Shown piece after piece: positions 8,082 to 25,935 of a DNA stretch of 26,371 bases; within the stretch, counting starts at the first letter, position 1, and each line of letters opens with the position of its first letter. Below the pieces are notes generated by a model. That model saw only the letters and a list, made by a program, of their open reading frames with translations, did not search any database and had not been told where the DNA came from. The translations under genes and the position numbers were made by a program. The stretch is taken from the IMG/VR virus record IMGVR_UViG_3300020385_000050, positions 1-26,371 of that record; one strand, written 5' to 3'. The stretch comes from a virus.

Positions 8082-8796
8082 AAAGGTATTGAATAAGGGT
8101 CATGTTGATCTGGTTGATCACATGGGATCTGATCTTACTGTTTGTAATGCCGCCAGAGTTTCCTTCAACAATGAAACCGACTGGGCAACTGACGAAGATG
8201 CAGTACAACGTCTCAGAGACTCGGGTTCTTCGTATCACAAAGAAGATGTTCGTAAGTTATCTGACAGGGACATCAAACTTCTAAATTACCTTGCTAAACA
8301 CAATCATTGGACACCATTCGCACATCCCCAGATTACATTGAGGATCAAGGCACCAATCTCGATTCGAACACAGTTCTTCAAGCACAAGCAAGGATTTGTT
8401 GAGAATGAAATCAGTCGTCGCTATGTTTCATTCAAACCAGACTTTTATATACCACAATGGAGAGGTAAGCCTGAAGGTAGTGCAAAGCAGGGCAGTGAAG
8501 AATTTATGGCAATAAAGGGTGAAAATGTTCGCTCATATGGTAATGCTATGGAACTATGTCTCTATACCTATGATCAACTCATTGCAGAAGGTGTCGCACC
8601 AGAACAGGCTCGTTTTGTTCTACCACAGGCAATGTTTACGGAGTGGTATTGGACTGGTTCCCTTGCTGCTTATGCCAGATTCTATAGTCAGAGAATTGAT
8701 GAACATGCTCAGTGGGAGATTCGTGAATATGCTAAAGTAATCGGTGATACAATTAGACCGTTATATCCACATTCGTGGAGATGTCTTACCAAATAA
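8062..8796 (+). CDS. thyX: FAD-dependent thymidylate synthase ThyX
   Basis: It methylates dUMP to dTMP using methylenetetrahydrofolate and FAD/NADPH, as a homotetramer. HNHWTPFAHPQ (81-90 region) is the usual N-terminal ThyX element. The signature RHRxxSxNExSxRY appears as KHKQGFVENEISRRY (107-121): the two Arg are Lys, but the Glu, Ser and final Arg-Tyr are kept. The QARFVLPQAMFTEWYWTGS segment matches the conserved region that ends the active site. Three ATGs lie in a row at 8056, 8059 and 8062; 8062 is chosen because GAGG (8052-8055) is 6 bases before it. The start overlaps the preceding gene by 20 bases. Confidence 0.93.
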   Translation: MTTTTSKKVLNKGHVDLVDHMGSDLTVCNAARVSFNNETDWATDEDAVQRLRDSGSSYHKEDVRKLSDRDIKLLNYLAKHNHWTPFAHPQITLRIKAPISIRTQFFKHKQGFVENEISRRYVSFKPDFYIPQWRGKPEGSAKQGSEEFMAIKGENVRSYGNAMELCLYTYDQLIAEGVAPEQARFVLPQAMFTEWYWTGSLAAYARFYSQRIDEHAQWEIREYAKVIGDTIRPLYPHSWRCLTK

Positions 8797-8799
8797 ATA
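8792..8799 (+). promoter_or_regulatory. Possible T4-type late promoter for the collagen-like gene
   Basis: AATAAATA matches 7 of 8 positions of the T4 late promoter TATAAATA. With the usual distance of six bases from the last position, the transcript would start at about 8805, on the candidate ATG of the collagen-like gene. Short AT-rich matches arise easily by chance, so this is only suggestive. Confidence 0.25.
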
Positions 8800-8804
8800 G
8801 AATA

Positions 8805-9995
8805 ATGAGTATACACAAAGATATTAATCTATTTTCCGAAGCTAGTATAGGTAAGACTGTTTTCTATCATGGTTCAATACTTCCTGATCTTGATCAGGGG
8901 GATTCTTTCAATGTTACGAATGATACCAGCAGTTTGGTATATCGAATCGGTTATGGTGCATCTTCTGTTAATCTTATTAATGAAGACGTGCATGTTACTC
9001 TTTTGGGTTCTTCTCGTCTTATTAATGAATCGTTTAGTGAAATGCTTGCTACGATAGATGATTTTGAAGTGGAAGAGATCGTAGAGGAATCAGTATTTAC
9101 ACAATCAGTTGGCCCAATGGGCCCAGTCGGACCTCGTGGTGAGCAGGGAGAGCAAGGGTTTCCTGGCATTCCTGGCCGCGATGGTAATGATGGAAAGGAT
9201 GGAACCGATGGCAATCAGGGTGAAAAGGGCGAACCAGGCGAGCGGGGTGAGGATGGTCAGCAGGGCCCTCAAGGCGAACACGGACTTCAAGGTGAACAGG
9301 GGCCTCAGGGTGAGCGGGGTGAACGAGGCCCTCAAGGTGAGCAGGGTGTTCAGGGGGAGATAGGAAATGTTGGTCCCGAAGGCCCTCGTGGAGAACGTGG
9401 TGAGCGAGGTGAACGTGGGGAACAAGGTATACAAGGTGAACATGGAGTTCAGGGTTCTGATGGTAAACAAGGAGAACGCGGACCACAAGGAGAACGTGGT
9501 GAGCGAGGTGAACGTGGACTTCAAGGCGAACGGGGATCTGACGGATTACGCGGAGAAGACGGAAAACCAGGCGAACATGGACCGAAAGGTGAACAGGGAG
9601 AAAGAGGAGAAGACGGAATCGCTAGAGTTTCTGGACCTCTTCTTTATGATTCATCCACCAAAGTTCTGTCGGTCAGTGAAAAGTGGGTAGAGTCCCTCGG
9701 CTCCATAATTCAAAATGGAGCAATTGTTGGTGGTGGTGGTGATCTTCTTGGAGTCAAAAAAGATGGGGTGCGTATTCCTAAAGGAAATGCAGTTCGTTAC
9801 ATTGATTTTAGAGGCACTGGAGTTGCGGTTAGTATTGACAAAAACAGTGCAGTTGTAGATATAACAACGTCCTCTAGTGGTGATGGTTCGGATAATGCAC
9901 TAGAGGTGAGTGGTGGTAACAATGTCATGTCACAGTTCCTTGACATGAATGGATTTGACATCTATAATGCTCGTGTAGATGGTGGAACTTTTTAA
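8805..9995 (+). CDS. Collagen-like repeat protein
   Basis: Counted from the ATG at 8805 the protein has 396 residues. Residues 1-102 are a folded N-terminal domain. They are followed by 56 uninterrupted Gly-X-Y triplets, dominated by GER, GEQ, GPQ and GED, as in bacterial and phage collagen-like triple helices. The last 125 or so residues are a beta-rich C-terminal domain with a GGGG hinge, probably for trimerisation or attachment. Phage collagen-like proteins are usually fibres or head and tail decorations, so this is probably a virion protein even though it sits between two nucleotide genes. No Shine-Dalgarno precedes 8805; GTG 8775 and ATG 8781 in the same frame are alternatives that overlap thyX. 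Confidence 0.88.
   Translation: MSIHKDINLFSEASIGKTVFYHGSILPDLDQGDSFNVTNDTSSLVYRIGYGASSVNLINEDVHVTLLGSSRLINESFSEMLATIDDFEVEEIVEESVFTQSVGPMGPVGPRGEQGEQGFPGIPGRDGNDGKDGTDGNQGEKGEPGERGEDGQQGPQGEHGLQGEQGPQGERGERGPQGEQGVQGEIGNVGPEGPRGERGERGERGEQGIQGEHGVQGSDGKQGERGPQGERGERGERGLQGERGSDGLRGEDGKPGEHGPKGEQGERGEDGIARVSGPLLYDSSTKVLSVSEKWVESLGSIIQNGAIVGGGGDLLGVKKDGVRIPKGNAVRYIDFRGTGVAVSIDKNSAVVDITTSSSGDGSDNALEVSGGNNVMSQFLDMNGFDIYNARVDGGTF
9111..9614 (+). repeat. Gly-X-Y coding repeat, 56 triplets
   Basis: This 504-base tract has a GGN at every ninth base and imperfect internal repeats, mainly variants of GGTGAGCGAGGTGAACGT. It encodes the collagen-like region. The DNA repetition could allow recombination to change fibre length. 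Long open frames on the other strand here are a by-product of the repeat. Confidence 0.9.
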
Positions 9996-12284: not shown

Positions 12285-13310
12285 ATGATTAACATTGGAA
12301 CAATTCTTCTTTCTGCGCCTCTTATGACAGGCGGTGTGGATACTGTGAACGCCCATGATTTAATCATGGCTGTTCGTGATGACTCCGCGACTCACATGAG
12401 TCTAACATCTGATGAATCCCCCATTACTCTTGACGTTACTGGTTTTCTCCAGTTTCGTTATTTGTTCAATGATGGTGGATCCAACACCTCTACTCGTGGA
12501 TTCGATGTAGAGCGCGCCCGAATTCAGTTCTCGGGTAAGGTGCATGACTTTGACTATGCAGTCAGTGGTCAGTGGAGTGACACCGAATTCGAACTCAAGG
12601 ATGCTTTCCTGAGTCGAAACTTCGGTGGATTTGATGTGAAGGCAGGACAGTTCGTCACCAGCTTCTATAGTGGTTACGTTGCTGATCCTACTACTCTTGT
12701 CTACGGTGATTACAGTGTCACCGCTTTGACTTATGGACAGGGACGTTCACAGGGATTCGAAGTGAGCCGAGGTTTTGATGCCTTCACCGCTTACGTTTCC
12801 TACAACGATGGCTTCAACACCGACAATAGTAATTTCGGTGATAACGATTATGGTATCAGTGCGCGCCTCGAATACGATGCAATTGATAACCTGACCATCG
12901 GTGGTGCATTCGCAAACCAGAACACTTCTACCGATAACTACAATAGTTTTACGGTTGATGCTGCTACTGAGTTCGGTGCATTTGATTTTTCTGCTGCGTA
13001 TGTTGCAGCCAACTGGAATGGCAGTTGGAACAACTACTCAATCGTTGGAACCGCAAGCTACGATCTTGATGATCAGATTCAGGTCTTCGGACAGTATGAA
13101 TATGGTGTTCTTGAAAGTGGAGCTTCGGATCTCAACTTGGGAACTGTTGGTGTGAATTATATCTTTAATTCAAATGTCCGCTGGACTAACTCTTTTGGTT
13201 ATGCTTTCAGTGGTGTTGATTCTGGTTATAACCTTACCGACACTGGATGGGAAACTTCTGCTGATAGTGGACAGTATCTCATTCGTAGTATGATTCAGAT
13301 CACCTTCTGA
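12285..13310 (+). CDS. Outer-membrane porin, phosphate-selective porin O/P-like
   Basis: The 341 residues have the alternating polar and hydrophobic strands with aromatic girdles of a beta-barrel, and end in Phe (MIQITF), the usual C-terminal signal for outer-membrane insertion by BAM. The segment GFLQFRYLFND, then VERARIQFSGKV, resembles the start of the phosphate-selective porin O/P family. A short hydrophobic N-terminus (about residues 1-23, ending VNA) may be a signal peptide, although it has no Lys or Arg near the start, which is unusual. AAAGGAG is 7 bases before the ATG. A strong promoter upstream and a terminator 20 bases after the stop make it part of an independent unit. Selectivity for phosphate is not established; it could equally be a general porin. 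Confidence 0.85.
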   Translation: MINIGTILLSAPLMTGGVDTVNAHDLIMAVRDDSATHMSLTSDESPITLDVTGFLQFRYLFNDGGSNTSTRGFDVERARIQFSGKVHDFDYAVSGQWSDTEFELKDAFLSRNFGGFDVKAGQFVTSFYSGYVADPTTLVYGDYSVTALTYGQGRSQGFEVSRGFDAFTAYVSYNDGFNTDNSNFGDNDYGISARLEYDAIDNLTIGGAFANQNTSTDNYNSFTVDAATEFGAFDFSAAYVAANWNGSWNNYSIVGTASYDLDDQIQVFGQYEYGVLESGASDLNLGTVGVNYIFNSNVRWTNSFGYAFSGVDSGYNLTDTGWETSADSGQYLIRSMIQITF

Positions 13311-13330: not shown

Positions 13331-13367
13331 AAAAGACCCCCGTTTCGGCGGGGGTCTTTTTCTTTTT
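13331..13367. terminator. Bidirectional rho-independent terminator
   Basis: AAAAGACCCCCG (13331-13342) pairs perfectly with CGGGGGTCTTTT (13349-13360) across a six-base loop (TTTCGG), and is followed by further T residues on the plus strand and T-rich sequence on the minus strand. It lies between the porin stop (13310) and the stop of the converging minus-strand gene (13366), so it can end both transcripts. Confidence 0.93.
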
Positions 13368-16300
13368 ATAGTCCTGTTGGTTTCTTTATTAGCACTTCTC
13401 CAGTTGGAATGTCAGACGGTAAACTAACGGTTGTTCCTGGCGCAGTTAGGTAGAAATATGATTCCAATGAAGATCCATGTGCAGTCATACCACCAGCGGT
13501 TTTGTCAACAAAGAAGGTAGTTCCATTCGGGAATGGTATTCCTATCGTATCTCCAGCAGCAACGTATGCGGTATGGAATCCAGATGCCTTATTGATTCCT
13601 ATTGTCGATCCGTCCTCACCGAAGAATATTTTTATTTTGTTTCTGTTACCTTGCACGGTTTGGTATGTGGAACCAAAAATTTGAACAGACGAAACATCAT
13701 ATCCATCATTCAACCATGTTTGGTTTTGACTGGCATTAGTTATAAAAGTTTCATACGGTTCATAACTACCAAGATCGGTTAGTCCGTCTGCCGCTGCTTC
13801 AAATTCACCATCTTCAAGAGCGTAATATGATGAAACTTGATTCACCGAAGACTGATTGGGTAAGAACAGGTACGAAGAAACGTCGGGAATCCCCTCGGCT
13901 CCTAGGAAAATGCTACGAAGTGAAGACGTGTTGCTAACTCTAGCCTCAACACCCTGATCAGTAGATGTGTCTCTCGGTAATCTTATAATATTATCAGAGA
14001 ACCTTTCTTCCAACTTTCCAGCGACTTCTTTGGTTGCTCTTACCTTAATGCGTTTTGCATGAAACTTCCCTTCTTCCCCGAAAGGTATTGCAATATTCAT
14101 TAGAGTGCTTCCCGTGACCGAAGGAATAAGAATATCTCCTAACTTTTCTGTCTGTGTTACATACCCACTATTAGCTGTTAAGTACGAAGAATCAACTTCA
14201 TAGGCGCCAATCGTAGAGTGACCAATTCTTCTCTTTCTGTTTAGATCAAATTGTACTTGGTTTTCCATTCCCAGTGTCCCCCCACCTACAAGTGGTGAAC
14301 GATCCGCTGGTTGGTGATCGATTACATCTAGTGAATATGGGGTCGCCATGTCTGTGGGTATGCCATCTCCGCCCGATTGTGGAATATTACCTTTCCATAA
14401 GGGAGGATTCTCAAATGGTAGTACGTTCATAATACCCGTTTGCGAGTTTTGATTACCATTTACGGGACCACCATCCCATCGGAAGTTTCTTTCTACCCGC
14501 AGAGGAATTGTTTGACCATTATTGATGTATGGCCATGTAATACCCGTTTTCTTAACATCATTATCTAACTCATCTGTATATTCTTGTCCTGTACCCCTGT
14601 ATATCCATTCAAACTCGTGGGCCCATTTATTAAGAAAGTTATTTCTGTATACCATTGCATCATGTTGTCTGAGAAATCCAACAGTAGTTCCATATGTTTC
14701 ACGCATATGGTCCCCGTCCTGACTGCCTAAATTGATTACACGGACTTGACCTTGCGGTTCGGAATCCGGATCCATGTCATTCTCTAACCCAACTCCATTA
14801 ATAATGTTTAAATTATGGAAAGTGTTATGATAAAATAAAACGTGTACTTTAGATGGTCCTTGAAAATTAAATCCGAAGATGGTGGGAATTGGGATATTGG
14901 ACCATACATTATTAACGAATGCTAAATCATGATAACCCCCATGATATGTCCCCGAACCCTCAATGTTTCCACCCTGTCCATCTATGACAAAGTTACAATA
15001 TGCGTACAAAGCATTTTCTACTCTATGCACAGCTCTTAATGGCTTCGAATCAAAATACTGCATCGAATCAACGTGGTTGGTATCTCTACCACCAAGAAGA
15101 CACCAACTTGGTATTGGATGGGTGTTCTGTGGAAAAATAGGAGTGTCAAAGGAAGCCCCAGTCGCAGTTCCCATATGCTCCGCAGATAGTCCCTGTGCCG
15201 TGATCCCTGCCGCCCATGCAACGTTAAATTGTCCTCGGTTCACCTGCGGATTTGGTCGGGTTAGGAATTGAGCTTTTGTATATGGCCAAGTCGGGTTGAA
15301 TTGTTTACTTAACTTAATCGGTTCACCCTCATCATCCACAACATCCTGTATATAACCTGCTGATGGCCATGTCGTTCCTGCTAAACGCCAAAGGAAGTCC
15401 TGAGTTACTCCCCAGTCATCGGGAATACCATTAGTACCAGCAGCAGGGTTTGCAGCTATCGGTTTTGATGCATCGAATAGAATCTGTCCCCATGCGGTAA
15501 TTCCTAAGTTACTGTCTTCATATTTAAGCATTGTGCAGAATATTGGTTCATAGAATTTATGATTTGGATTATATGGACCGTCTGGATCTGGATCATATAT
15601 TAATCCACCAACGGAGCTGGCACCCCCGTCACCATCAACGTCATTATATGCAAACTCAATTTGCGCTTCCGTACTCAGACTATCAGTGACAGTCTTATTT
15701 GTGAACCACCACGGTGATGATTTTTCTGGTGATATTAGGTGGTGCCGAGACGCAAATGGTGCGGTCATTGTATTGAGAGTTGGTGGTTCTCTAACATTAT
15801 TATCTCCAAAGTATGGATCAGACGAATTTTTGGAAGTCTCATCCTCATTGTATAGTTGTCCCCACTGCCTATAGGTGGTTAGATTGAAATTAGTTTCACT
15901 GACTGGATCTTCTTGAAATGGTAGATTTACGTCTAAGAAATTCTCTTGGTTTATTTTTTGCCATACAGTTCCCGTTTCTGTCTCCTCTTTAAAAGAAGAG
16001 TCATCTACAGATACGGCTGGATCCGTACTCGCGGGATGTGGAACGTTCTGAGGTCTTTTTGGCCAAGATAATGTCACTCCCGCTGGGGAGTTTAAATTGT
16101 GTAGTCGAATATACTCGTTCAGTGTTCCGGGTTCAAACAACCGACTTCCGTTCGCATCAAGATCGGTTTTGCTCCCCCTCGTTCTTCCAATATATCGAAT
16201 GGAAGCATAATATCCGCTGAATTGTGTATATGGTGCGGTTGTATCATCATTTGGATCAAACCATATTCTTCTCCATTCTCCGAATACATTATTGTTACCT

Positions 16301-17817
16301 TTGAGCGTTACTGCGGCTGCCATGCTCATCTGCTTTAAATTGTCTCCGTCATTTTTTACAACATCAACATTAATTAAATTGGTGAATGCAATACTGTTTT
16401 CATCTCCACCTAAAATTTTTGATGGTTTTGCTGCTGTTCCAGAGAGGAGAACACGTTGATCGGGGACCGTTTCTCCTTTTAGGAAAGCTCCCTTTGGGTG
16501 GATTTGACCGTATGAATATGATGCCATTGTCATATCATGGAACCAAACTAAATCTGCTTCAGCGGTATGACCAGCAACAAAGTCACGTGCCGAATCCTTT
16601 ATTCTAAATCCTAACTCTGTCTGAGTAACTTTTGTCTGTGGTCTGTCTATGTAGACATGTTGAATGCTAAAACAATTTAGGGTTGGATTTTTAACGAGGA
16701 GACTAAAATCAGAACTGTGAACTCTTCTTGGTAGTTCTGGTGGGTCCGCGTTGACGTTTAATGCAGCTTCTTCATCGGTGAGTGTGAGTATCACATCTTC
16801 TCTAGGTACATCAGTGTCACCTCTTACGATGAACCAACCTCTCTTACACAGGGGTCTTCTGTTATCAGGATCTGTTTCGTCTATAAACTGTCCACCATCT
16901 CTTACGGTTAGCCATCCTATTTGACGAGAAGCATTGACACCCGTTATGGGGTCGTCAACGTCTCCAAAGTTTACTGCGGTGTATTTGCCTTCTAGTAAAA
17001 CAATTTCACATCTCGAAACATCCACATAATGGTTTCCTGTACCATCTTCTGTGATAAGTCGATTCGGTGCATTCATAGCAAGATCTCTAATTACTTCTAG
17101 CGCCCTTCCTATAGTTTTTACTGGAGATTCTTTTGTTTTTCCGTCATTGTCATCATTACCTGCTGGAAGCATGTACGCTGTGATACTTTTAAGTTCTGAA
17201 GTATCTTCATACACTGAGTTTTCCTGAAGAACTGTTCCTATCATGGAATGCTCACCTGGCACTGTTTTCTTATCAAAGAAAAAGTCACCCTTTCCTCCAG
17301 AAAATCCCATGTGATACCCCGTAAGTAAAGTCAAATCCTCACCAAGAATAACATCTTTGTCGTGTTGATGCATTCTGGGGACACCAGAGATCGGTCTTAC
17401 GATTGCTCGTAATTCCATATTGTTTGCGAATTCACTACCACTGGTTTGATCTGAGTCCTTTGGATTTATGACATCGGCTTTATTGACTCGGACACAGTAC
17501 TCAGGTAGGTTGGTGTATGGGTTTATTTCCTGGTCTGTTACCTTAACACCCTCACCACCATTAAGAATGAATTCAACCTCTTTGATTCCCTCTGCGTGAT
17601 ATGCCATGAGTCCAAAATAAAGGTGATCTGGATCACTTGTACCAGAAAATGCTGGTTGTTCGGATTCACCCTCCCTATATAATTGGAATGGATACTCAGT
17701 CCAGCGAGAGATTGGCTTATAATTATGTCCAGCTACACCATCATCACCAATAGCAGCCTCATCTGGAAATAGTCCACTAAAACCAGTTCCCGAAGTAACA
17801 CCCTTAATTTCACCCAT
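13366..17817 (-). CDS. Giant probable virion or adhesin protein with beta-helix region (1483 aa)
   Basis: This is the largest gene in the window. Near residues 217-244 it has a DDNDGKTKESPVKTIGRAL segment, which fits the G-x-D-x-N-G-T...P-x-K-T-I...A-L pattern that opens pectate-lyase-like right-handed beta-helix (DUF1565-type) domains. Many Asn/Asp/Gly turns and repeated short strands follow to about residue 1150. The C-terminal part is beta-rich and resembles fibre or receptor-binding tips. There is no signal peptide or membrane helix. I infer a tail fibre, tailspike or other host-recognition protein, but lyase activity is also possible. The ATG at 17817 is chosen because GGAG lies 9 bases before it; a TTG 15 bases upstream is the longest alternative. 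The start of the divergent resolvase gene is only 16 bases away. Confidence 0.8.
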   Translation of the reverse strand: MGEIKGVTSGTGFSGLFPDEAAIGDDGVAGHNYKPISRWTEYPFQLYREGESEQPAFSGTSDPDHLYFGLMAYHAEGIKEVEFILNGGEGVKVTDQEINPYTNLPEYCVRVNKADVINPKDSDQTSGSEFANNMELRAIVRPISGVPRMHQHDKDVILGEDLTLLTGYHMGFSGGKGDFFFDKKTVPGEHSMIGTVLQENSVYEDTSELKSITAYMLPAGNDDNDGKTKESPVKTIGRALEVIRDLAMNAPNRLITEDGTGNHYVDVSRCEIVLLEGKYTAVNFGDVDDPITGVNASRQIGWLTVRDGGQFIDETDPDNRRPLCKRGWFIVRGDTDVPREDVILTLTDEEAALNVNADPPELPRRVHSSDFSLLVKNPTLNCFSIQHVYIDRPQTKVTQTELGFRIKDSARDFVAGHTAEADLVWFHDMTMASYSYGQIHPKGAFLKGETVPDQRVLLSGTAAKPSKILGGDENSIAFTNLINVDVVKNDGDNLKQMSMAAAVTLKGNNNVFGEWRRIWFDPNDDTTAPYTQFSGYYASIRYIGRTRGSKTDLDANGSRLFEPGTLNEYIRLHNLNSPAGVTLSWPKRPQNVPHPASTDPAVSVDDSSFKEETETGTVWQKINQENFLDVNLPFQEDPVSETNFNLTTYRQWGQLYNEDETSKNSSDPYFGDNNVREPPTLNTMTAPFASRHHLISPEKSSPWWFTNKTVTDSLSTEAQIEFAYNDVDGDGGASSVGGLIYDPDPDGPYNPNHKFYEPIFCTMLKYEDSNLGITAWGQILFDASKPIAANPAAGTNGIPDDWGVTQDFLWRLAGTTWPSAGYIQDVVDDEGEPIKLSKQFNPTWPYTKAQFLTRPNPQVNRGQFNVAWAAGITAQGLSAEHMGTATGASFDTPIFPQNTHPIPSWCLLGGRDTNHVDSMQYFDSKPLRAVHRVENALYAYCNFVIDGQGGNIEGSGTYHGGYHDLAFVNNVWSNIPIPTIFGFNFQGPSKVHVLFYHNTFHNLNIINGVGLENDMDPDSEPQGQVRVINLGSQDGDHMRETYGTTVGFLRQHDAMVYRNNFLNKWAHEFEWIYRGTGQEYTDELDNDVKKTGITWPYINNGQTIPLRVERNFRWDGGPVNGNQNSQTGIMNVLPFENPPLWKGNIPQSGGDGIPTDMATPYSLDVIDHQPADRSPLVGGGTLGMENQVQFDLNRKRRIGHSTIGAYEVDSSYLTANSGYVTQTEKLGDILIPSVTGSTLMNIAIPFGEEGKFHAKRIKVRATKEVAGKLEERFSDNIIRLPRDTSTDQGVEARVSNTSSLRSIFLGAEGIPDVSSYLFLPNQSSVNQVSSYYALEDGEFEAAADGLTDLGSYEPYETFITNASQNQTWLNDGYDVSSVQIFGSTYQTVQGNRNKIKIFFGEDGSTIGINKASGFHTAYVAAGDTIGIPFPNGTTFFVDKTAGGMTAHGSSLESYFYLTAPGTTVSLPSDIPTGEVLIKKPTGL

Positions 17818-17833
17818 ACGAAAGTTCTCCAAA

Positions 17834-20609: not shown

Positions 20610-21365
20610 TCAATCGTCGATAATACTCTCCAGAGTTTCCTGAAGTAGATAACTTGTTACATTATCTATGTCACTTTCATCTAGCTGCATTTCATACTTC
20701 TTGGCGGCAGATTTTACGACGTAAGCAAAGCCCTTAAATGCTTGTGCTTCAGTCATTGCTCTGGATGGATAAGTTAGATCTCCATCGACTCTGGTAACAA
20801 CGTCTTGAATTAGTGGCTTGATCTTTGACTCGAAAAGTTCATCATCGTTGTCGATTTTGAGCTTGAGTTCAAGGGCTTCACCAACGAGTTCATCTTCTTC
20901 AGTTGTCTCGTTGACGAAGTGGAGTTTACCTTCAAGGCTGACGTTTCCTTCACCCGATGAACGAACAGAAAGGACTAGAGGCGAACCGAACTTTTCGGTT
21001 GCTAGATCCTGTTCACCAATTTCACCAGTTGGTCCGAACTTATCGTCTAACTTGTAACCATAAACTTCGCCATAGTACTTGACTTCGTATGAAGTGATGT
21101 CCCCGTCAGAAACACCTTCGTTGCAGTTGAAGTTGAGTCCGACTTGGTTTAGTCGAATCTTTAGCTGCTCTAGACGCGCCTTTGGGTTCATGTGTTGACC
21201 AGATAGAAAGTTCTCGATGAAAGCGTTTACTTTACCGAGCTTATCTTTATCTGCGAGATTCTGGTGTACACCATCATCTCGGTGCAGGGACTGTCCCGAA
21301 TAACCAAACATGGAGTACTCAGACTCGACAATTAGCTTTTCTCTTAGATCTTTAAATCGTTGCAT
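20610..21365 (-). CDS. Hypothetical protein, acidic (251 aa)
   Basis: An unrecognised protein. Residues 1-30 are basic and polar, residues 60-190 are rich in beta-type alternation with many Gly, Glu and Asp, and the C-terminus is helical and acidic, ending IIDD. Two ATGs, at 21368 and 21365, are adjacent; 21365 is preferred because GGGAG lies about 5 bases before it and only 2 before the other. It follows the 100-aa gene directly and so shares the late promoter at 21691-21704. A virion or assembly role is possible but not shown. Confidence 0.75.
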   Translation of the reverse strand: MQRFKDLREKLIVESEYSMFGYSGQSLHRDDGVHQNLADKDKLGKVNAFIENFLSGQHMNPKARLEQLKIRLNQVGLNFNCNEGVSDGDITSYEVKYYGEVYGYKLDDKFGPTGEIGEQDLATEKFGSPLVLSVRSSGEGNVSLEGKLHFVNETTEEDELVGEALELKLKIDNDDELFESKIKPLIQDVVTRVDGDLTYPSRAMTEAQAFKGFAYVVKSAAKKYEMQLDESDIDNVTSYLLQETLESIIDD

Positions 21366-21667
21366 CATTCACTCCCAGATTTGTTTGCCATTGTATCATA
21401 AACACGACGATAGAACTCTGCTGACATAGTGTGATCAACAGCTAGTTTGTGCTGTCTAGCTGCACCATAGAAGTGTTCCTTCATGACCTCAGCTAGTTTT
21501 TCAGCAGTTCTTTCCCCTAGTGGGATCTGTGTAATACTATCCGCACAAGCCTGTACGGTTTCGTTGACTGCCTCTGGTAGGATAGTAGCATAATGTTCTT
21601 TATCATGCTTTTCCATGAGTTTAGCAATATCGTTTACTGCGTTCTTGTATTTGGGATCGTTAAACAT
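21365..21667 (-). CDS. Hypothetical protein (100 aa), first gene after late promoter
   Basis: The 100 residues are almost entirely helical, with an early KLMEKHDKEHY segment and a later KLAEVMKEHFYGAARQH segment. GAGGAGG lies 9 bases before the ATG, the strongest ribosome site on this strand, and a tandem TATAAATA sits 24 bases before it. That arrangement predicts a highly expressed late gene. No family is recognised. Confidence 0.75.
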   Translation of the reverse strand: MFNDPKYKNAVNDIAKLMEKHDKEHYATILPEAVNETVQACADSITQIPLGERTAEKLAEVMKEHFYGAARQHKLAVDHTMSAEFYRRVYDTMANKSGSE

Positions 21668-21690: not shown

Positions 21691-21704
21691 TATTTATATT
21701 TATA
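21691..21704 (-). promoter_or_regulatory. Tandem T4-type late promoter
   Basis: Read on the minus strand, the bases are TATAAATATAAATA, two overlapping perfect copies of the T4 late promoter octamer. The proximal copy predicts a start near 21685 and an 18-base leader containing GAGGAGG before the ATG at 21667. The stop codon of the upstream gene (TAA, 21702-21700) lies inside the element. Confidence 0.7.
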
Positions 21705-22284
21705 TAGCCTTTCGTATCGCGTTAAACAGCGATCTGGCTAATCGTTTTGTCGTTGCCTTTGGTAAGCCTTGTGAAAATAGATCAAAATCGTCGTCCTGAA
21801 CTGCTGCTCTCATCTTGGTTCCAGACATTCCAGTTGTCCCCTCGGCATCTGGATCTCTTTTACCAGAAGATATTACCTCAAAGTTGTCAAACTCAAAGCT
21901 CTTCTTTTTGTCTGTGTGCTTGATGTACTTTGAAATCTCTCTCTTCATGTCAGCGATTCTGTCTCCACCAACGATAAGCACTACATTTTTGTATCCTTGA
22001 TCGCTAAGTTGTTTCATCATGTAAAATGGATTGATGATCTTAGCGTCTTCGTGTACTGTTGCCTTTGGAAACATTGCGCGTAGAAATCTGACTTTATCTT
22101 TATAGCGAAGGGGGTTTTTTACGTTGTTCTGACTTGGGCTAGTGTAGATTCTACTTTCAAACCCCATCCTCTTGGCGACTGAAGTTACCTTATCGACAAC
22201 TTTCTCGTGACCAGATGTTGGGGGTTGGAAACGCCCAAAGGTTACAACAATACCTCTCCCTCGTTTTTTCACTTCACTTAGCAT
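21700..22284 (-). CDS. HxGH-type nucleotidyltransferase (cytidylyltransferase/NMNAT-like)
   Basis: The 194 residues have the hallmark of the HIGH-superfamily nucleotidyltransferases. GRFQPPTSGH (17-26) has TSGH in place of HxGH, VGGDR is at 105-109, and the second signature is MSGTKMR (153-159), matching ISSTxxR. Members transfer AMP or CMP to phosphorylated substrates such as NMN, phosphopantetheine or choline phosphate. T4-like marine phages carry similar proteins, and KVP40 has a related NAD-synthesis enzyme, so nicotinamide mononucleotide is a plausible substrate, but it cannot be read from the sequence. The gene begins one base after the preceding stop and has a weak ribosome site. Confidence 0.85.
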   Translation of the reverse strand: MLSEVKKRGRGIVVTFGRFQPPTSGHEKVVDKVTSVAKRMGFESRIYTSPSQNNVKNPLRYKDKVRFLRAMFPKATVHEDAKIINPFYMMKQLSDQGYKNVVLIVGGDRIADMKREISKYIKHTDKKKSFEFDNFEVISSGKRDPDAEGTTGMSGTKMRAAVQDDDFDLFSQGLPKATTKRLARSLFNAIRKAI

Positions 22285-22285
22285 A

Positions 22286-22531
22286 TTACTTTCTTAGTTT
22301 TAAGAATGACTTCTTTTCTTTTGCCTTTTTCTTTGCCTTGACTTCAGAGTCTCTCTTCTTTTCGCGTCTCTCTTGTTTTTCGATGCGGTTATCTACGGCA
22401 ACTTCTTCGTTGTATATCCAACGTCCACCGACTCGTTCAAAAGAACCCCCGTGAAGTTCAACGTACTCTTTCATAAGTACAGCTCTTCTGGAGTTGTTTA
22501 CAATGGATTCTAGTTTTCTTTTGCTAATCAT
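22286..22531 (-). CDS. Small basic protein (81 aa)
   Basis: The first 45 residues look like a small folded domain (YVELHGGSFERVGGRWIYNE). The rest is a Lys/Glu/Arg-rich helix ending in KKSFLKLRK. The charge suggests nucleic-acid binding. It overlaps the ligase-like gene as ATGA and precedes the nucleotidyltransferase by one base, so the three are probably translated together. No family is recognised. Confidence 0.7.
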   Translation of the reverse strand: MISKRKLESIVNNSRRAVLMKEYVELHGGSFERVGGRWIYNEEVAVDNRIEKQERREKKRDSEVKAKKKAKEKKSFLKLRK

Positions 22532-23736
22532 TTTTTACCCTTCCAGTCCTTCTTGACTGTAAAATTAGATCTTGAAAATTCTAGTCTATCGACCAGTTTA
22601 TAAGCGTTTTTCTTGAATTTATCAATGGCAACAAATCCCTCTGGTGAGGTTATTTTGTATCCATCGGTGGTTCGTATGAACATGCCAAGAGATTTCACTT
22701 TTTCGAATTTTCTCACAAATCGAATTTTTAGTTCAATAAGAGCATAATGAAGATCGAAAATATCTTTAATGTTTTTTCTGTTTTTGTTGAGGTACGAGAT
22801 GATATCATCTAGTTTTTTCTTCTTTTGAAGTTTACCACGTTCTGTCTTCAAAGAAACTATGGCTCCCTGCATCTTGTCGTTCACGAATTTTGTGAACTCC
22901 TCCGCAGAGTAACGCATCCTACCTTGACGGACTTGTGCGTTTCCATAGATTTTCAGATCGTCGATTATTGATTTCTTCGATGTGAATTCATCAATGAATC
23001 TACGATGTTTAGCGAATGCCACCTTAATCTTGCTAATTTCATCCTTAGCAGATTCGGTCTCAGCCGCTGTGAAAGTTGCGGTCCCTGATGTGTCCCGAAA
23101 GTCTGCGTCGGTAAACCATACATCATTTACCTTCTTCAGACCATTCACATTCGCTCCAAACGATGCTTTCATACCAATCATCGTTTTACCTGTATATGTA
23201 GTATGCCAAACTACTCCTAGTTTGGCCTTTTTTATTTTTTGTGCAAACTCAGTTTCAGACTTTACGGCATATGTGATTGTATTTGGCGTAAATGTGAGAT
23301 ACGACTCACCATCAATAGTTTGTTTTTCAACATCATCGGTGAACATCATGTCACCCTGAAGGACACCCTTGATTCCCAGTTTGGGTAGGTGTTTCAGTGC
23401 AGCTTGTAGTTTGTCGGCTAGTCCACCTTCGTGGTTTTTGCGAATGTCTGCTGCTGTGTAATTGATCTTTGGAGTACCTGAGTTGAACACCGACTTGGTG
23501 CCAACGAAGAACTTACCGTTTTCGGGGTTCGTTCCTGCAAATATTGCAGGCGCACCATCCCATTTGACAGTTACGTTTACTCTGCTTTTAGAGTTACCCT
23601 CAACCATGTCTAGGAGGGATTCGCAGAACAAAATGGCATCTTTCACACCCTTCGATCCTTCATTGAATAATGAATCTTCAAGGTGTTCTAAATGTAGATT
23701 TTTGCTTTCTGCTAAATAAGTACAGAACCCATGCAT
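22528..23736 (-). CDS. Ligase-like nucleotidyltransferase (DUF6267-like)
   Basis: The 402 residues resemble a T4-like phage family that I recall as DUF6267. Elements fitting the covalent nucleotidyltransferase (DNA/RNA ligase, capping enzyme) order are KWDGAPA (58-64, motif I lysine K58), GVLQGDMMF (124-132, motif III position), VVWHTTYTG (175-183, motif IIIa) and EGFVAI (366-371, motif IV), followed by K380 in AYKLVDR (possible motif V). These would bind ATP and form a lysyl-AMP intermediate. The gap between motifs IIIa and IV is long and helical. It could be an RNA or DNA ligase or a protein AMPylase; activity is not established. GGAG lies 6 bases before the ATG. Confidence 0.75.
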   Translation of the reverse strand: MHGFCTYLAESKNLHLEHLEDSLFNEGSKGVKDAILFCESLLDMVEGNSKSRVNVTVKWDGAPAIFAGTNPENGKFFVGTKSVFNSGTPKINYTAADIRKNHEGGLADKLQAALKHLPKLGIKGVLQGDMMFTDDVEKQTIDGESYLTFTPNTITYAVKSETEFAQKIKKAKLGVVWHTTYTGKTMIGMKASFGANVNGLKKVNDVWFTDADFRDTSGTATFTAAETESAKDEISKIKVAFAKHRRFIDEFTSKKSIIDDLKIYGNAQVRQGRMRYSAEEFTKFVNDKMQGAIVSLKTERGKLQKKKKLDDIISYLNKNRKNIKDIFDLHYALIELKIRFVRKFEKVKSLGMFIRTTDGYKITSPEGFVAIDKFKKNAYKLVDRLEFSRSNFTVKKDWKGKK

Positions 23737-24746: not shown

Positions 24747-24888
24747 GTACTTCTTCTAGTTCTGGCTCTTGCTTTTTAGGCTCTTGTGCTGCTGTTTGGT
24801 TTCTATTTTGCCACTGCTGGTGTTGTGCGCCATCACTACCTGGCTGTCTCATAGCCTGCACCCATCCAAAGAAATCTTTCATACTCAT
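24727..24888 (-). CDS. Small protein with acidic tail (53 aa)
   Basis: The frame runs from ATG 24888 to TGA 24729-24727 and gives 53 residues starting MSMKDFFGWVQAMRQPG. A Gln-rich middle and a Glu-rich end (EELEEVLDNEED-like composition) follow. The ATG overlaps the stop of the preceding gene (ATGA); an in-frame ATG six bases later has AAGG at good spacing. The tight coupling supports a real gene despite its small size. No function is recognised. Confidence 0.65.
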   Translation of the reverse strand: MSMKDFFGWVQAMRQPGSDGAQHQQWQNRNQTAAQEPKKQEPELEEVLDNEED

Positions 24889-25241
24889 CCTTGTTCTCTC
24901 ACTTTCTTAAGTCTTTCGACTTCACGCTTTTTCAATTTAGGCAGCAAACGCTTTGCTATCTTTTGTAGTCTAGCGGCTGGAATCTTTTCCAGCCTCTTAT
25001 CAATCATGCCTTTTTCCGCATAGGACAGTTCATTGTAGTTTTTACCAGAAGAATACTTCTTCTTGAATATAGTTCTAGCCGCTTTGTTTGCTTTCATGAG
25101 GAGATCAGAATGTGTCTTCATTCTCTTCTCCTTCTGCTTTCTGCGGAACGCTCGTCTCTTCGCAGTTCTTTTTGCGATCTGACCACGTTTCTTTCGTTGG
25201 GCGGCAGTCAGTCTAACGGCTCGTTCTATGATGTTTCTCAT
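24885..25241 (-). CDS. Very basic conserved protein (118 aa)
   Basis: The 118 residues are about one third Lys and Arg, with the pattern RKKRGQIAKRTAKRRAFRRK at the start, KAARTIFKKKYSSGKNY in the middle and RLEKIPAARLQKIAKRLLPK later. I recall similar basic proteins conserved in T4-like marine phages, without an assigned role. It is probably helical and able to bind nucleic acid, so DNA packaging or head assembly is possible. The start overlaps the preceding stop as ATGA. Confidence 0.78.
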   Translation of the reverse strand: MRNIIERAVRLTAAQRKKRGQIAKRTAKRRAFRRKQKEKRMKTHSDLLMKANKAARTIFKKKYSSGKNYNELSYAEKGMIDKRLEKIPAARLQKIAKRLLPKLKKREVERLKKVREQG

Positions 25242-25738
25242 ACTTCTTCTCTTGTTACCGTAACAATTTTATTGATCTGTTTCTGAATCGAATTGATTCG
25301 ATCAGGCCATAGTATATATTCTTTGTCGGGGTTTTTCATGAGGTTATATAAGAGAGGGAGGATCAGCTTCTCGACCTCTGACATTTTAGTCTTATATACA
25401 TCGTCCAATTGAGCTTTTCTCTCTTCGACTTCATCGATCACGGCACGAATGTTTTCACCCTGTGATTCAATGGTTTTGGACAGCTCATCGTTCTGTAATG
25501 ATAGGATACTATCCACCTTTGATTCGATTCTATCGACACCAGCGTTGTAGAATTCGTCTCCTGGCATGGAAGCTAAGATTAGGTTGAGTCTATCCTCTAT
25601 CTTTTCTAAAACAGCACTATCAATCGCGTCAGAAGACGACTCTGAGCTTTCAGGGGAAGAAACTCCGAGATCATCAGCGTCCACAGCAGTGAACCCAAAG
25701 TCAAAATCAGAGTTTAGATACTCGTCGGGGATATTCAT
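25238..25738 (-). CDS. Conserved T4-like protein with coiled coil (166 aa)
   Basis: Residues 1-45 are acidic and Ser-rich (MNIPDEYLNSDFDFGFTAVD), residues 45-125 form a probable coiled coil, and the C-terminal LILPLLYNLMKNPDKEYILW followed by PDR matches a segment I recall from T4-like cyanophage proteins of unknown, possibly structural, role. The ATG at 25738 is used; the preceding TTG at 25741 is less likely. It overlaps the previous stop by one base (TGATG). Confidence 0.78.
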   Translation of the reverse strand: MNIPDEYLNSDFDFGFTAVDADDLGVSSPESSESSSDAIDSAVLEKIEDRLNLILASMPGDEFYNAGVDRIESKVDSILSLQNDELSKTIESQGENIRAVIDEVEERKAQLDDVYKTKMSEVEKLILPLLYNLMKNPDKEYILWPDRINSIQKQINKIVTVTREEV

Positions 25739-25935
25739 CAATACCCGTCCATTCCCACCGGTGCGAGTGTTTTTCTTCCTGCGGTGATGCCTTTAGTCAT
25801 CATTTGAGTTCTCTTTTTATGAGCTTCTTGCCCTTTGACAGAAACGGGTGGATCTGAACCAAGACCAGCAACAGATCCGCTGCTGGCGTTGTTTGCGGGC
25901 ATATCCTCTGAGATGTATTCTTTAAATGATTTCAT
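25738..25935 (-). CDS. Small conserved phage protein starting MKSFKEYI (65 aa)
   Basis: The 65 residues begin MKSFKEYISEDMP, an opening common among T4-like marine phage proteins, followed by a Gly/Ser-rich linker (NNASSGSVAGLGSDPP) and a basic end. The ATG at 25935 overlaps the stop of the 58-aa gene (ATGA) and has GGAGG just upstream. The frame also extends upstream to 25992, but that part overlaps the 58-aa gene and lacks a ribosome site. Function unknown. Confidence 0.7.
   Translation of the reverse strand: MKSFKEYISEDMPANNASSGSVAGLGSDPPVSVKGQEAHKKRTQMMTKGITAGRKTLAPVGMDGY

What the first reader, a model, noticed from the sequence alone, without database searches (positions are those of the whole stretch)
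21700..23736. Ligase-like KxDG protein, basic protein and HxGH nucleotidyltransferase as one unit
Three consecutive genes overlap or lie one base apart. One has the lysyl-AMP ligase motifs, another the HIGH-family signature, and the third is a basic protein. The linked enzymes suggest a shared pathway, perhaps NAD-related or nucleic-acid repair, with no described product. I recall both enzyme families from T4-like marine phages but no function for the ligase-like one.
Basis: partly seen in the sequence, partly recalled or inferred. Interest (0 to 1): 0.55.

Follow-up and report, generated by a model that had tools for sequence, protein, structure and literature searches.

The report
Head-packaged ligase-like phage enzyme cassette
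Two neighbouring enzyme genes of a T4-like phage, one folded like an RNA ligase, appear to belong to a cassette of proteins carrying a short address tag that would load them into the phage head for delivery into the next host cell.

Summary
The three genes exist as described: a 4-base overlap, then a 1-base gap. The KxDG protein is Pfam DUF6267; its AlphaFold model resembles RNA ligases (best Z 9.1), with conserved KWDG, QGDxM, PEG and KLVDR motifs. The third gene is a HIGH-fold adenylyltransferase, with TxGH rather than HxGH.

The DUF6267 protein starts MHGFCTYLAE|S, in the same register as the T4 capsid-targeting sequence (T4 ipIII MKTYQEFIAE|A: positions 4, 7, 8, 10), which is cut after L/I-x-E. 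The tag is on 63 of 122 DUF6267 ORFs but 31 of 1103 other ORFs in the same loci. Its neighbours include tagged adenylate kinase, HAD-like, kinase and nucleotidyltransferase genes. Across two phages with mass-spectrometry virion lists, 5 of 6 tagged genes are virion proteins (p = 0.0015). The tagged relatives of the third gene are in the virions of three cyanophages.

I conclude that this is a head-packaged enzyme cassette. That DUF6267 itself is packaged, and its substrate, remain inferred: no virion detection of DUF6267 was found, and untagged DUF6267 relatives in two phages are not virion proteins. Strict co-occurrence of the two enzymes fails (35 of 73 loci).

The parts
22528..23736 (-). 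DUF6267 gene, 402 aa, RNA-ligase-fold KxDG protein with N-terminal tag
   Evidence: ORF; Pfam PF19782 E 4.5e-120; AF2 model pLDDT 85.2; best structural neighbours RNA ligases, Z 9.1
23707..23736 (-). codons 1-10, MHGFCTYLAE: capsid-targeting-like tag with L-x-E site at the position of T4 ipIII
   Evidence: residues 1-14 of the model have pLDDT under 50
23554..23565 (-). K58-W-D-G, ligase motif I (AMP-accepting lysine, inferred)
   Evidence: K58, D60, G61 invariant in A2
23338..23358 (-). Q127-GDMMFT, motif III-like
   Evidence: Q127, G128, D129 invariant
22630..22644 (-). PEGFV 365-369, motif IV-like
   Evidence: E366, G367, V369 invariant
22585..22599 (-). K380-LVD-R384, motif V-like (second Lys of KxK absent)
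   Evidence: K380, R384 invariant
22286..22531 (-). 81-aa basic protein
   Evidence: BLAST relatives only in L001-L005
21700..22284 (-). HIGH-fold adenylyltransferase (annotated cytidyltransferase in relatives), 194 aa; only a short MLSE start, no full tag
   Evidence: phrog_3041 E 9.6e-55; AF2 pLDDT 90.3; PPAT/NadD/NMNAT neighbours Z 13.7-12.4
22207..22236 (-). GRFQPPTSGH nucleotide-binding motif
   Evidence: alignment A3
21691..21704 (-). tandem TATAAATA, T4-late-promoter-like, in front of the next operon
   Evidence: only two exact matches in the window
20610..21368 (-). 252-aa protein with tag-like start; relative of tag-like proteins at the same place in HTVC008M and Melnitz-3
   Evidence: E 6e-7 and 2e-5
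24885..25241 (-). 118-aa basic protein (pI 11.6); its family sits between DUF6267 and the nucleotidyltransferase in Melnitz-3 and C48C1, where it is tagged (C48C1), and inside the DLP6 nucleotidyltransferase
   Evidence: E 1e-12, 1e-11, 3e-7
25738..25935 (-). small protein starting MKSFKEYISE at an inner ATG, tag in the T4 register

Best explanation
The DUF6267 gene encodes a lysyl-AMP (ligase-like) nucleotidyltransferase that is loaded into the assembling phage head. A cleavable N-terminal capsid-targeting sequence of the T4 internal-protein type does this; the head protease cuts it after L-A-E, and the mature enzyme enters the next host with the DNA. It is one item of an exchangeable cassette of tagged or co-delivered proteins: the HIGH adenylyltransferase, basic proteins, and in relatives adenylate kinase, HAD-like proteins and kinases. 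They would act on host or phage nucleic acid or nucleotides at once, before any phage gene is expressed. Shown here: the tag, its register, its enrichment, the two folds, and tagged nucleotidyltransferases in published virion lists. Inferred: packaging and cleavage of DUF6267 itself, ejection, adenylylation. Guess: RNA repair as the reaction (about 0.25).
For: The tag matches T4 ipIII position for position. The T4 review says residues 4 and 7 target, 8 and 10 direct cutting, and gp21 cuts after L/I-x-E (PMC9026906, passages). Tag pattern within one register step: 63 of 122 DUF6267 ORFs, 31 of 1103 other ORFs in the same loci, 44 of 24500 random inner positions (Fisher 1e-47). 53 of 73 distinct N-termini outside one clade carry it, mostly followed by S, A or G. 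In S-CREM2, 4 of 52 virion and 1 of 167 other proteins are tagged; they are SAM hydrolase, APH-like kinase, cytidylyltransferase and a small protein. In S-SCSM1 the only CDS tagged at its annotated start, of 282, is the virion NMNAT-like nucleotidyltransferase. Together 5 of 100 against 1 of 401, p = 0.0015. In S-SM1 the virion-detected T4-GC190 nucleotidyltransferase is the only tagged CDS of 87 in the stretch read. In S-CRM01 the kinase near DUF6267, reported in virions, is tagged, and so are the nucleotidyltransferase and a third gene there; these are 3 of 68 CDS. Tagged neighbours of DUF6267 include adenylate kinase (E 6e-38) and HAD-like genes. Ligase fold.
Against: No DUF6267 protein was found in any virion list that I could read. 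Two divergent, untagged DUF6267 proteins (S-CREM2 ORF87, SSCSM1_257) are not virion-listed. That fits the tag idea but shows that DUF6267 need not be packaged. The window's nucleotidyltransferase has no full tag, and only 3 of 34 nucleotidyltransferase ORFs in the contigs do. S-CBWM1's NMNAT, reported in virions, is untagged. S-CREM2 ORF175 is tagged but not in the virion. Authors of both virion papers allow that such enzymes may be contaminants. Foldseek alone gave no significant match for DUF6267, and a profile comparison with T4 Rnl2 found nothing. A late-promoter test was inconclusive.
Confidence: 0.55

Rival explanations
1. Ordinary intracellular enzymes. DUF6267 is a ligase-like RNA or DNA repair enzyme made after infection. 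The N-terminal motif has another role, for example binding a phage partner, and virion detection of relatives is carry-over.
For: In most annotated relatives read, the genes lie beside DNA polymerase, UvsX or helicase genes. Cyanophage DUF6267 lacks the tag. The papers name carry-over as possible.
Against: The motif sits on unrelated proteins, matches the T4 packaging signal in register, and tagged genes fall in virion lists more often than chance.
Confidence: 0.28
2. NAD or cofactor pathway. The HIGH enzyme is an NMN adenylyltransferase and DUF6267 a partner adenylyltransferase that restores NAD+ drained by host defence.
For: Weak best sequence matches are NMN adenylyltransferases; NadD and NMNAT are among the fold neighbours; a KNPL stretch resembles that of archaeal NMNAT (recalled).
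Against: Scores are far below the curated cut-offs; PPAT ranks first in structure; the family has TxGH as PPAT does (recalled), not HxGH; no NadV-like gene was seen in the neighbourhoods that I read.
Confidence: 0.1
3. DUF6267 is a head-core or scaffold protein that kept a dead ligase fold.
For: An L/I-x-E site close to the start also occurs in T4 core proteins (gp21, gp22).
Against: Motif residues K58, D60, G61, E366, G367 and K380 are invariant in 63 sequences, as expected for an active enzyme.
Confidence: 0.04

Closest known systems
T4 internal head proteins (ipI, ipII, ipIII, Alt) with capsid-targeting sequence
   Same: N-terminal tag of about 10 residues, aromatic at 4 and 7, I/L at 8, E at 10, cut site L/I-x-E
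   Different: the cargo here is a ligase-like enzyme, in relatives mostly in a replication-gene neighbourhood; no homology noted in the mature protein
Nick-sealing RNA ligases (Naegleria Rnl, T4 Rnl2, T. brucei REL1)
   Same: predicted fold (Z 9.1, 7.5, 8.0); KxDG, EG and K motifs in order
   Different: no sequence-profile similarity to T4 Rnl2; a helical insert at about 224-345; second lysine of motif V absent
HIGH-superfamily adenylyltransferases (PPAT, NadD, NMNAT)
   Same: fold and motifs
   Different: substrate unknown; no equivalog cut-off met
Virion-associated cytidylyltransferase/NMNAT of cyanophages S-SM1, S-CREM2, S-SCSM1
   Same: same nucleotidyltransferase family, in the same locus in S-SM1; found in virions by mass spectrometry
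   Different: in those phages the tag is on the nucleotidyltransferase, not on DUF6267

Membership tests
Pfam DUF6267 (PF19782) | score over the curated cut-off along the full profile | tested here: met
   401.9 bits against 27, profile 1-376 of 376
RNA-ligase-like covalent nucleotidyltransferases | motif I KxDG with invariant Lys | tested here: met
   K58-W-D-G, K58 invariant in A2
RNA-ligase-like covalent nucleotidyltransferases | ligase fold | tested here: inconclusive
   VIA-align: ranks 1-42 of 50 are ligases, best Z 9.1, rmsd 3.5, 182 aligned; Foldseek itself had no E <= 0.001
RNA-ligase-like covalent nucleotidyltransferases | motif V KxK (recalled) | tested here: not met
   K380-LVD-R384: first Lys invariant, no second Lys; so I say ligase-like, not ligase family member
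RNA-ligase-like covalent nucleotidyltransferases | adenylylation and strand joining | not testable with these tools
   needs purified protein
HIGH-superfamily nucleotidyltransferases | (T/H)xGH and C-terminal S/T-x-x-R-type motifs, Rossmann-like fold | tested here: met
   TSGH and MSGTKMR; Foldseek E 3.1e-6, Z 13.7
NMN adenylyltransferase | NCBIfam equivalog cut-off | tested here: not met
   21.4 bits against 397
T4-type capsid-targeted internal proteins | N-terminal targeting residues 4 and 7 and L/I-x-E cut site at 8-10 | tested here: met
   F4, Y7, L8, E10 in the window DUF6267
T4-type capsid-targeted internal proteins | present and processed in virions | not tested
   presence only is reported for tagged nucleotidyltransferases of three cyanophages; no data for tagged DUF6267
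T4-type capsid-targeted internal proteins | ejected into the host | not testable with these tools
   experiment needed

The most novel reading that the evidence does not exclude
Marine T4-like phages carry a general, modular address tag for the head, the same as T4's. With it they deliver an exchangeable kit of enzymes into the cell at time zero: ligase-like DUF6267, HIGH nucleotidyltransferase, adenylate kinase, HAD-like proteins, protein kinase and SAM hydrolase. The tag moves between partners of one complex (on DUF6267 in the window's clade, on the nucleotidyltransferase in cyanophages), so any CDS starting with it can be predicted as an injected effector from sequence alone.
Probability: 0.45. 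Interest if true: 0.8.

Novelty: new variant of a known kind. Interest (0 to 1): 0.62.

Why it matters
Hundreds of cyanophage and related genomes (467 records) carry DUF6267 with no assigned function; the name is in none of the PMC papers searched. A fold plus a delivery route turns it into a testable enzyme. A readable head-packaging tag would let one list the injected proteins of some of the commonest ocean viruses from sequence, and would explain why enzymes such as nucleotidyltransferases and kinases keep turning up in virion proteomes, so far left as possible contamination.

Tried and rejected
Strict operon or obligate pair: rejected, because half of the loci lack the nucleotidyltransferase nearby. 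Defence-system membership: no PADLOC match for the three window proteins. Solved relatives by sequence: none credible. NAD synthesis as the leading reading: not supported. Late promoter in front of DUF6267: inconclusive, 9 of 121 against 46 of 1026. SSCSM1_90, a virion protein beside the nucleotidyltransferase, was suspected to be DUF6267 and is not. Sequence-profile link to T4 Rnl2: none. A loose tag pattern in S-CREM2 was weaker (4 of 52 against 4 of 167, p 0.09), and the Melnitz-3 genome gave only 3 tagged of 210 against a mean of 0.7 at inner positions. Control limits: inner positions do not share start-codon composition, so other genes' N-termini are the better control. The second contig scan kept the best 80 of at least 599 relatives, so DUF6267 counts are not a random sample. 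Related sequences are not independent.

Full report
WHAT IS THERE. The window is a 26371-base viral record. DUF6267 matches Pfam PF19782 over its whole length (E 4.5e-120). The third protein matches phage 'cytidyltransferase' families phrog_3041 and phrog_395 (E 9.6e-55, 8.8e-45). phrog_455 covers both domains in one profile, and fusions occur in contigs L007 and L008 and in S-PM2. DUF6267 is in 467 and the nucleotidyltransferase in 527 of 50,697 phage records, mostly cyanophages.

ENZYME FOLDS. An AlphaFold model of DUF6267 from a 63-sequence alignment has mean pLDDT 85.2. Foldseek alone has no significant hit. Realignment of its 1000 best chains puts RNA and DNA ligases in rows 1-42 of the 50 listed: Naegleria RNA ligase Z 9.1 (182 residues, rmsd 3.5), T. 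brucei REL1 8.0, fungal tRNA ligase 7.5, T4 Rnl2 7.5, T4 Rnl1 7.0. The tool warns that Z near 8 can be a common arrangement; the uniform list and the motifs K58WDG, QGDxM, PEG(F/Y)V and KLVDR, in ligase order with invariant key residues, make the assignment credible. The second lysine of the usual KxK motif V (recalled) is absent, and a profile comparison with T4 Rnl2 finds nothing, so I call it ligase-like, not a ligase family member. The nucleotidyltransferase model (pLDDT 90.3) is clearly of the HIGH fold (Foldseek E 3.1e-6; PPAT Z 13.7, NadD 13.3, NMNAT 12.4). Its substrate is open.

THE TAG. The DUF6267 protein begins MHGFCTYLAES, and residues 1-14 of the model are of low confidence, as for a disordered segment. 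T4 ipIII begins MKTYQEFIAEA in the T4 record. The T4 review reports that residues 4 and 7 of ipIII direct head targeting, 8 and 10 processing, and that gp21 cuts after L/I-x-E (PMC9026906, passages read). The window protein has F4, Y7, L8, E10. In contigs, 36 of 122 DUF6267 ORFs match the exact T4 register and 63 of 122 within one position, against 28 and 31 of 1103 other ORFs in the same loci and 16 and 44 of 24500 random inner positions. Among 73 distinct N-termini outside one clade, 53 carry it, followed by S in 23 and A in 13. In the clade L014-L042 DUF6267 starts with a shorter L-x-E peptide instead.

OTHER TAGGED GENES. Tagged neighbours in the same loci include adenylate kinases (L122: Pfam ADK E 6e-38), HAD-like proteins, nucleotidyltransferases (L078, L129) and several families with no Pfam match. 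In Melnitz-3 only 3 of 210 proteins match the first pattern: a RimK-like ATP-grasp protein, the gene just before DUF6267, and DUF6267. In C48C1, DUF6267, the basic protein after it and a 90-aa protein are tagged. In S-CRM01 DUF6267 itself is untagged, but 3 of 68 CDS in the stretch read are tagged, all within the five genes downstream of it: a protein kinase, a small protein and the nucleotidyltransferase. In the window a small protein at 25935-25738 starts MKSFKEYISE. The 118-aa basic protein at 25241-24885 belongs to the family that lies between the two enzymes in Melnitz-3 and C48C1.

VIRION DATA. S-CREM2 (Table 3 of PMC10665884, section 18 read) lists 52 virion proteins. The tag pattern, drawn from DUF6267 relatives before this genome's N-termini were looked at, hits 4 of these (SAM hydrolase, APH-like kinase, cytidylyltransferase, ORF13) and 1 of 167 others. 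In S-SCSM1 (PMC9602691, passages read) 48 of 282 CDS carry the label 'virion protein' (counted by eye; the paper says 45). The only CDS tagged at its annotated start is the virion NMNAT-like nucleotidyltransferase SSCSM1_91. Together 5 of 100 virion and 1 of 401 other proteins are tagged, p = 0.0015. In S-SM1, T4-GC190 was found in virions (PMC3037559, section 26 read), and SSM1_190 (GC190) is the only tagged CDS of 87 in the 49 kb that I read. S-PM2's untagged fused form was not detected in its virion, but that study also missed seven known structural proteins, so this is weak. The S-CRM01 virion kinase is cited in PMC10665884 (section 19); I did not see the original paper.

AGAINST. No tagged DUF6267 has been looked for in virions, as far as I found. 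The untagged divergent DUF6267 proteins of S-CREM2 (ORF87) and S-SCSM1 (SSCSM1_257) are not virion-listed. The window's nucleotidyltransferase lacks a full tag, as do 31 of 34 nucleotidyltransferase ORFs in the contigs and window. S-CBWM1's virion NMNAT is untagged. S-CREM2 ORF175 is tagged but not virion-listed. Both sets of authors allow for contamination. The nucleotidyltransferase is downstream in only 35 of 73 loci. A late-promoter test was inconclusive; the only exact TATAAATA pair in the window precedes the next operon.

MECHANISM. Most likely DUF6267 is made late, bound to the prohead core by its tag, cut by the prohead protease, and ejected with the DNA, as T4 internal proteins are. 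The steps after the tag are inferred. The ligase-like fold, and adenylate kinase or HAD-like partners in some relatives, suggest nucleic-acid end repair or nucleotide adenylylation. I put RNA repair at about 0.25. Tag position differs by lineage (on DUF6267 in the window's clade, on the nucleotidyltransferase in S-SM1, S-RIM50, S-CRM01, S-CREM2 and S-SCSM1; on neither in P-HM2), which would make sense if the two travel as one complex; this is a guess.

KNOWN OR NEW. T4-type targeting sequences and virion-borne nucleotidyltransferases are known. PMC9026906 already suggests that T4-like phages may use such sequences to package varied proteins. Searches of the PMC library found no paper with 'DUF6267' and only that T4 review with 'capsid targeting' and 'cyanophage'; the listings added nothing on the point. 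The fold of DUF6267, the tag on it and the tagged cassette therefore seem undescribed within that library, which lacks most subscription papers. I rate this a new variant of a known kind.

Noticed in passing
L050:7704-10313 (S-CREM2, minus strand): A protein annotated Cas9-like and found in virions has a tag-like stretch (RFASFMAEA) about 20 residues in, after a short leader; a similar leader plus tag layout occurs in S-CRM01 g128.
   Followed up: no
L006:1272-3446: Nucleotidyltransferase fused to a RimK-like ATP-grasp domain and a putative ATP-dependent protease domain; other relatives carry P-loop, metallopeptidase-like or Polbeta-like parts.
   Followed up: partly
L014-L042 group: DUF6267 without a nucleotidyltransferase; a neighbouring family (fam45) can start with a tag-like FxxYVSE or FxxYIAE.
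   Followed up: partly
window 13366-17832 (-): 1488-aa ORF starting at TTG, perhaps a large virion or fibre-like protein, on the opposite strand to the replication genes.
   Followed up: no
window 12285-13310 (+): 341-aa protein that looks like an outer-membrane porin (by eye), unusual cargo for a phage.
   Followed up: no
window 8775-9995 (+): 406-aa protein with a long collagen-like G-x-x repeat.
   Followed up: no
L150:17907-18791 (S-SCSM1) and L051:8890-9777 (S-CREM2): Short divergent DUF6267 homologues of about 295 aa, annotated only as hypothetical, away from the nucleotidyltransferase and untagged.
   Followed up: partly
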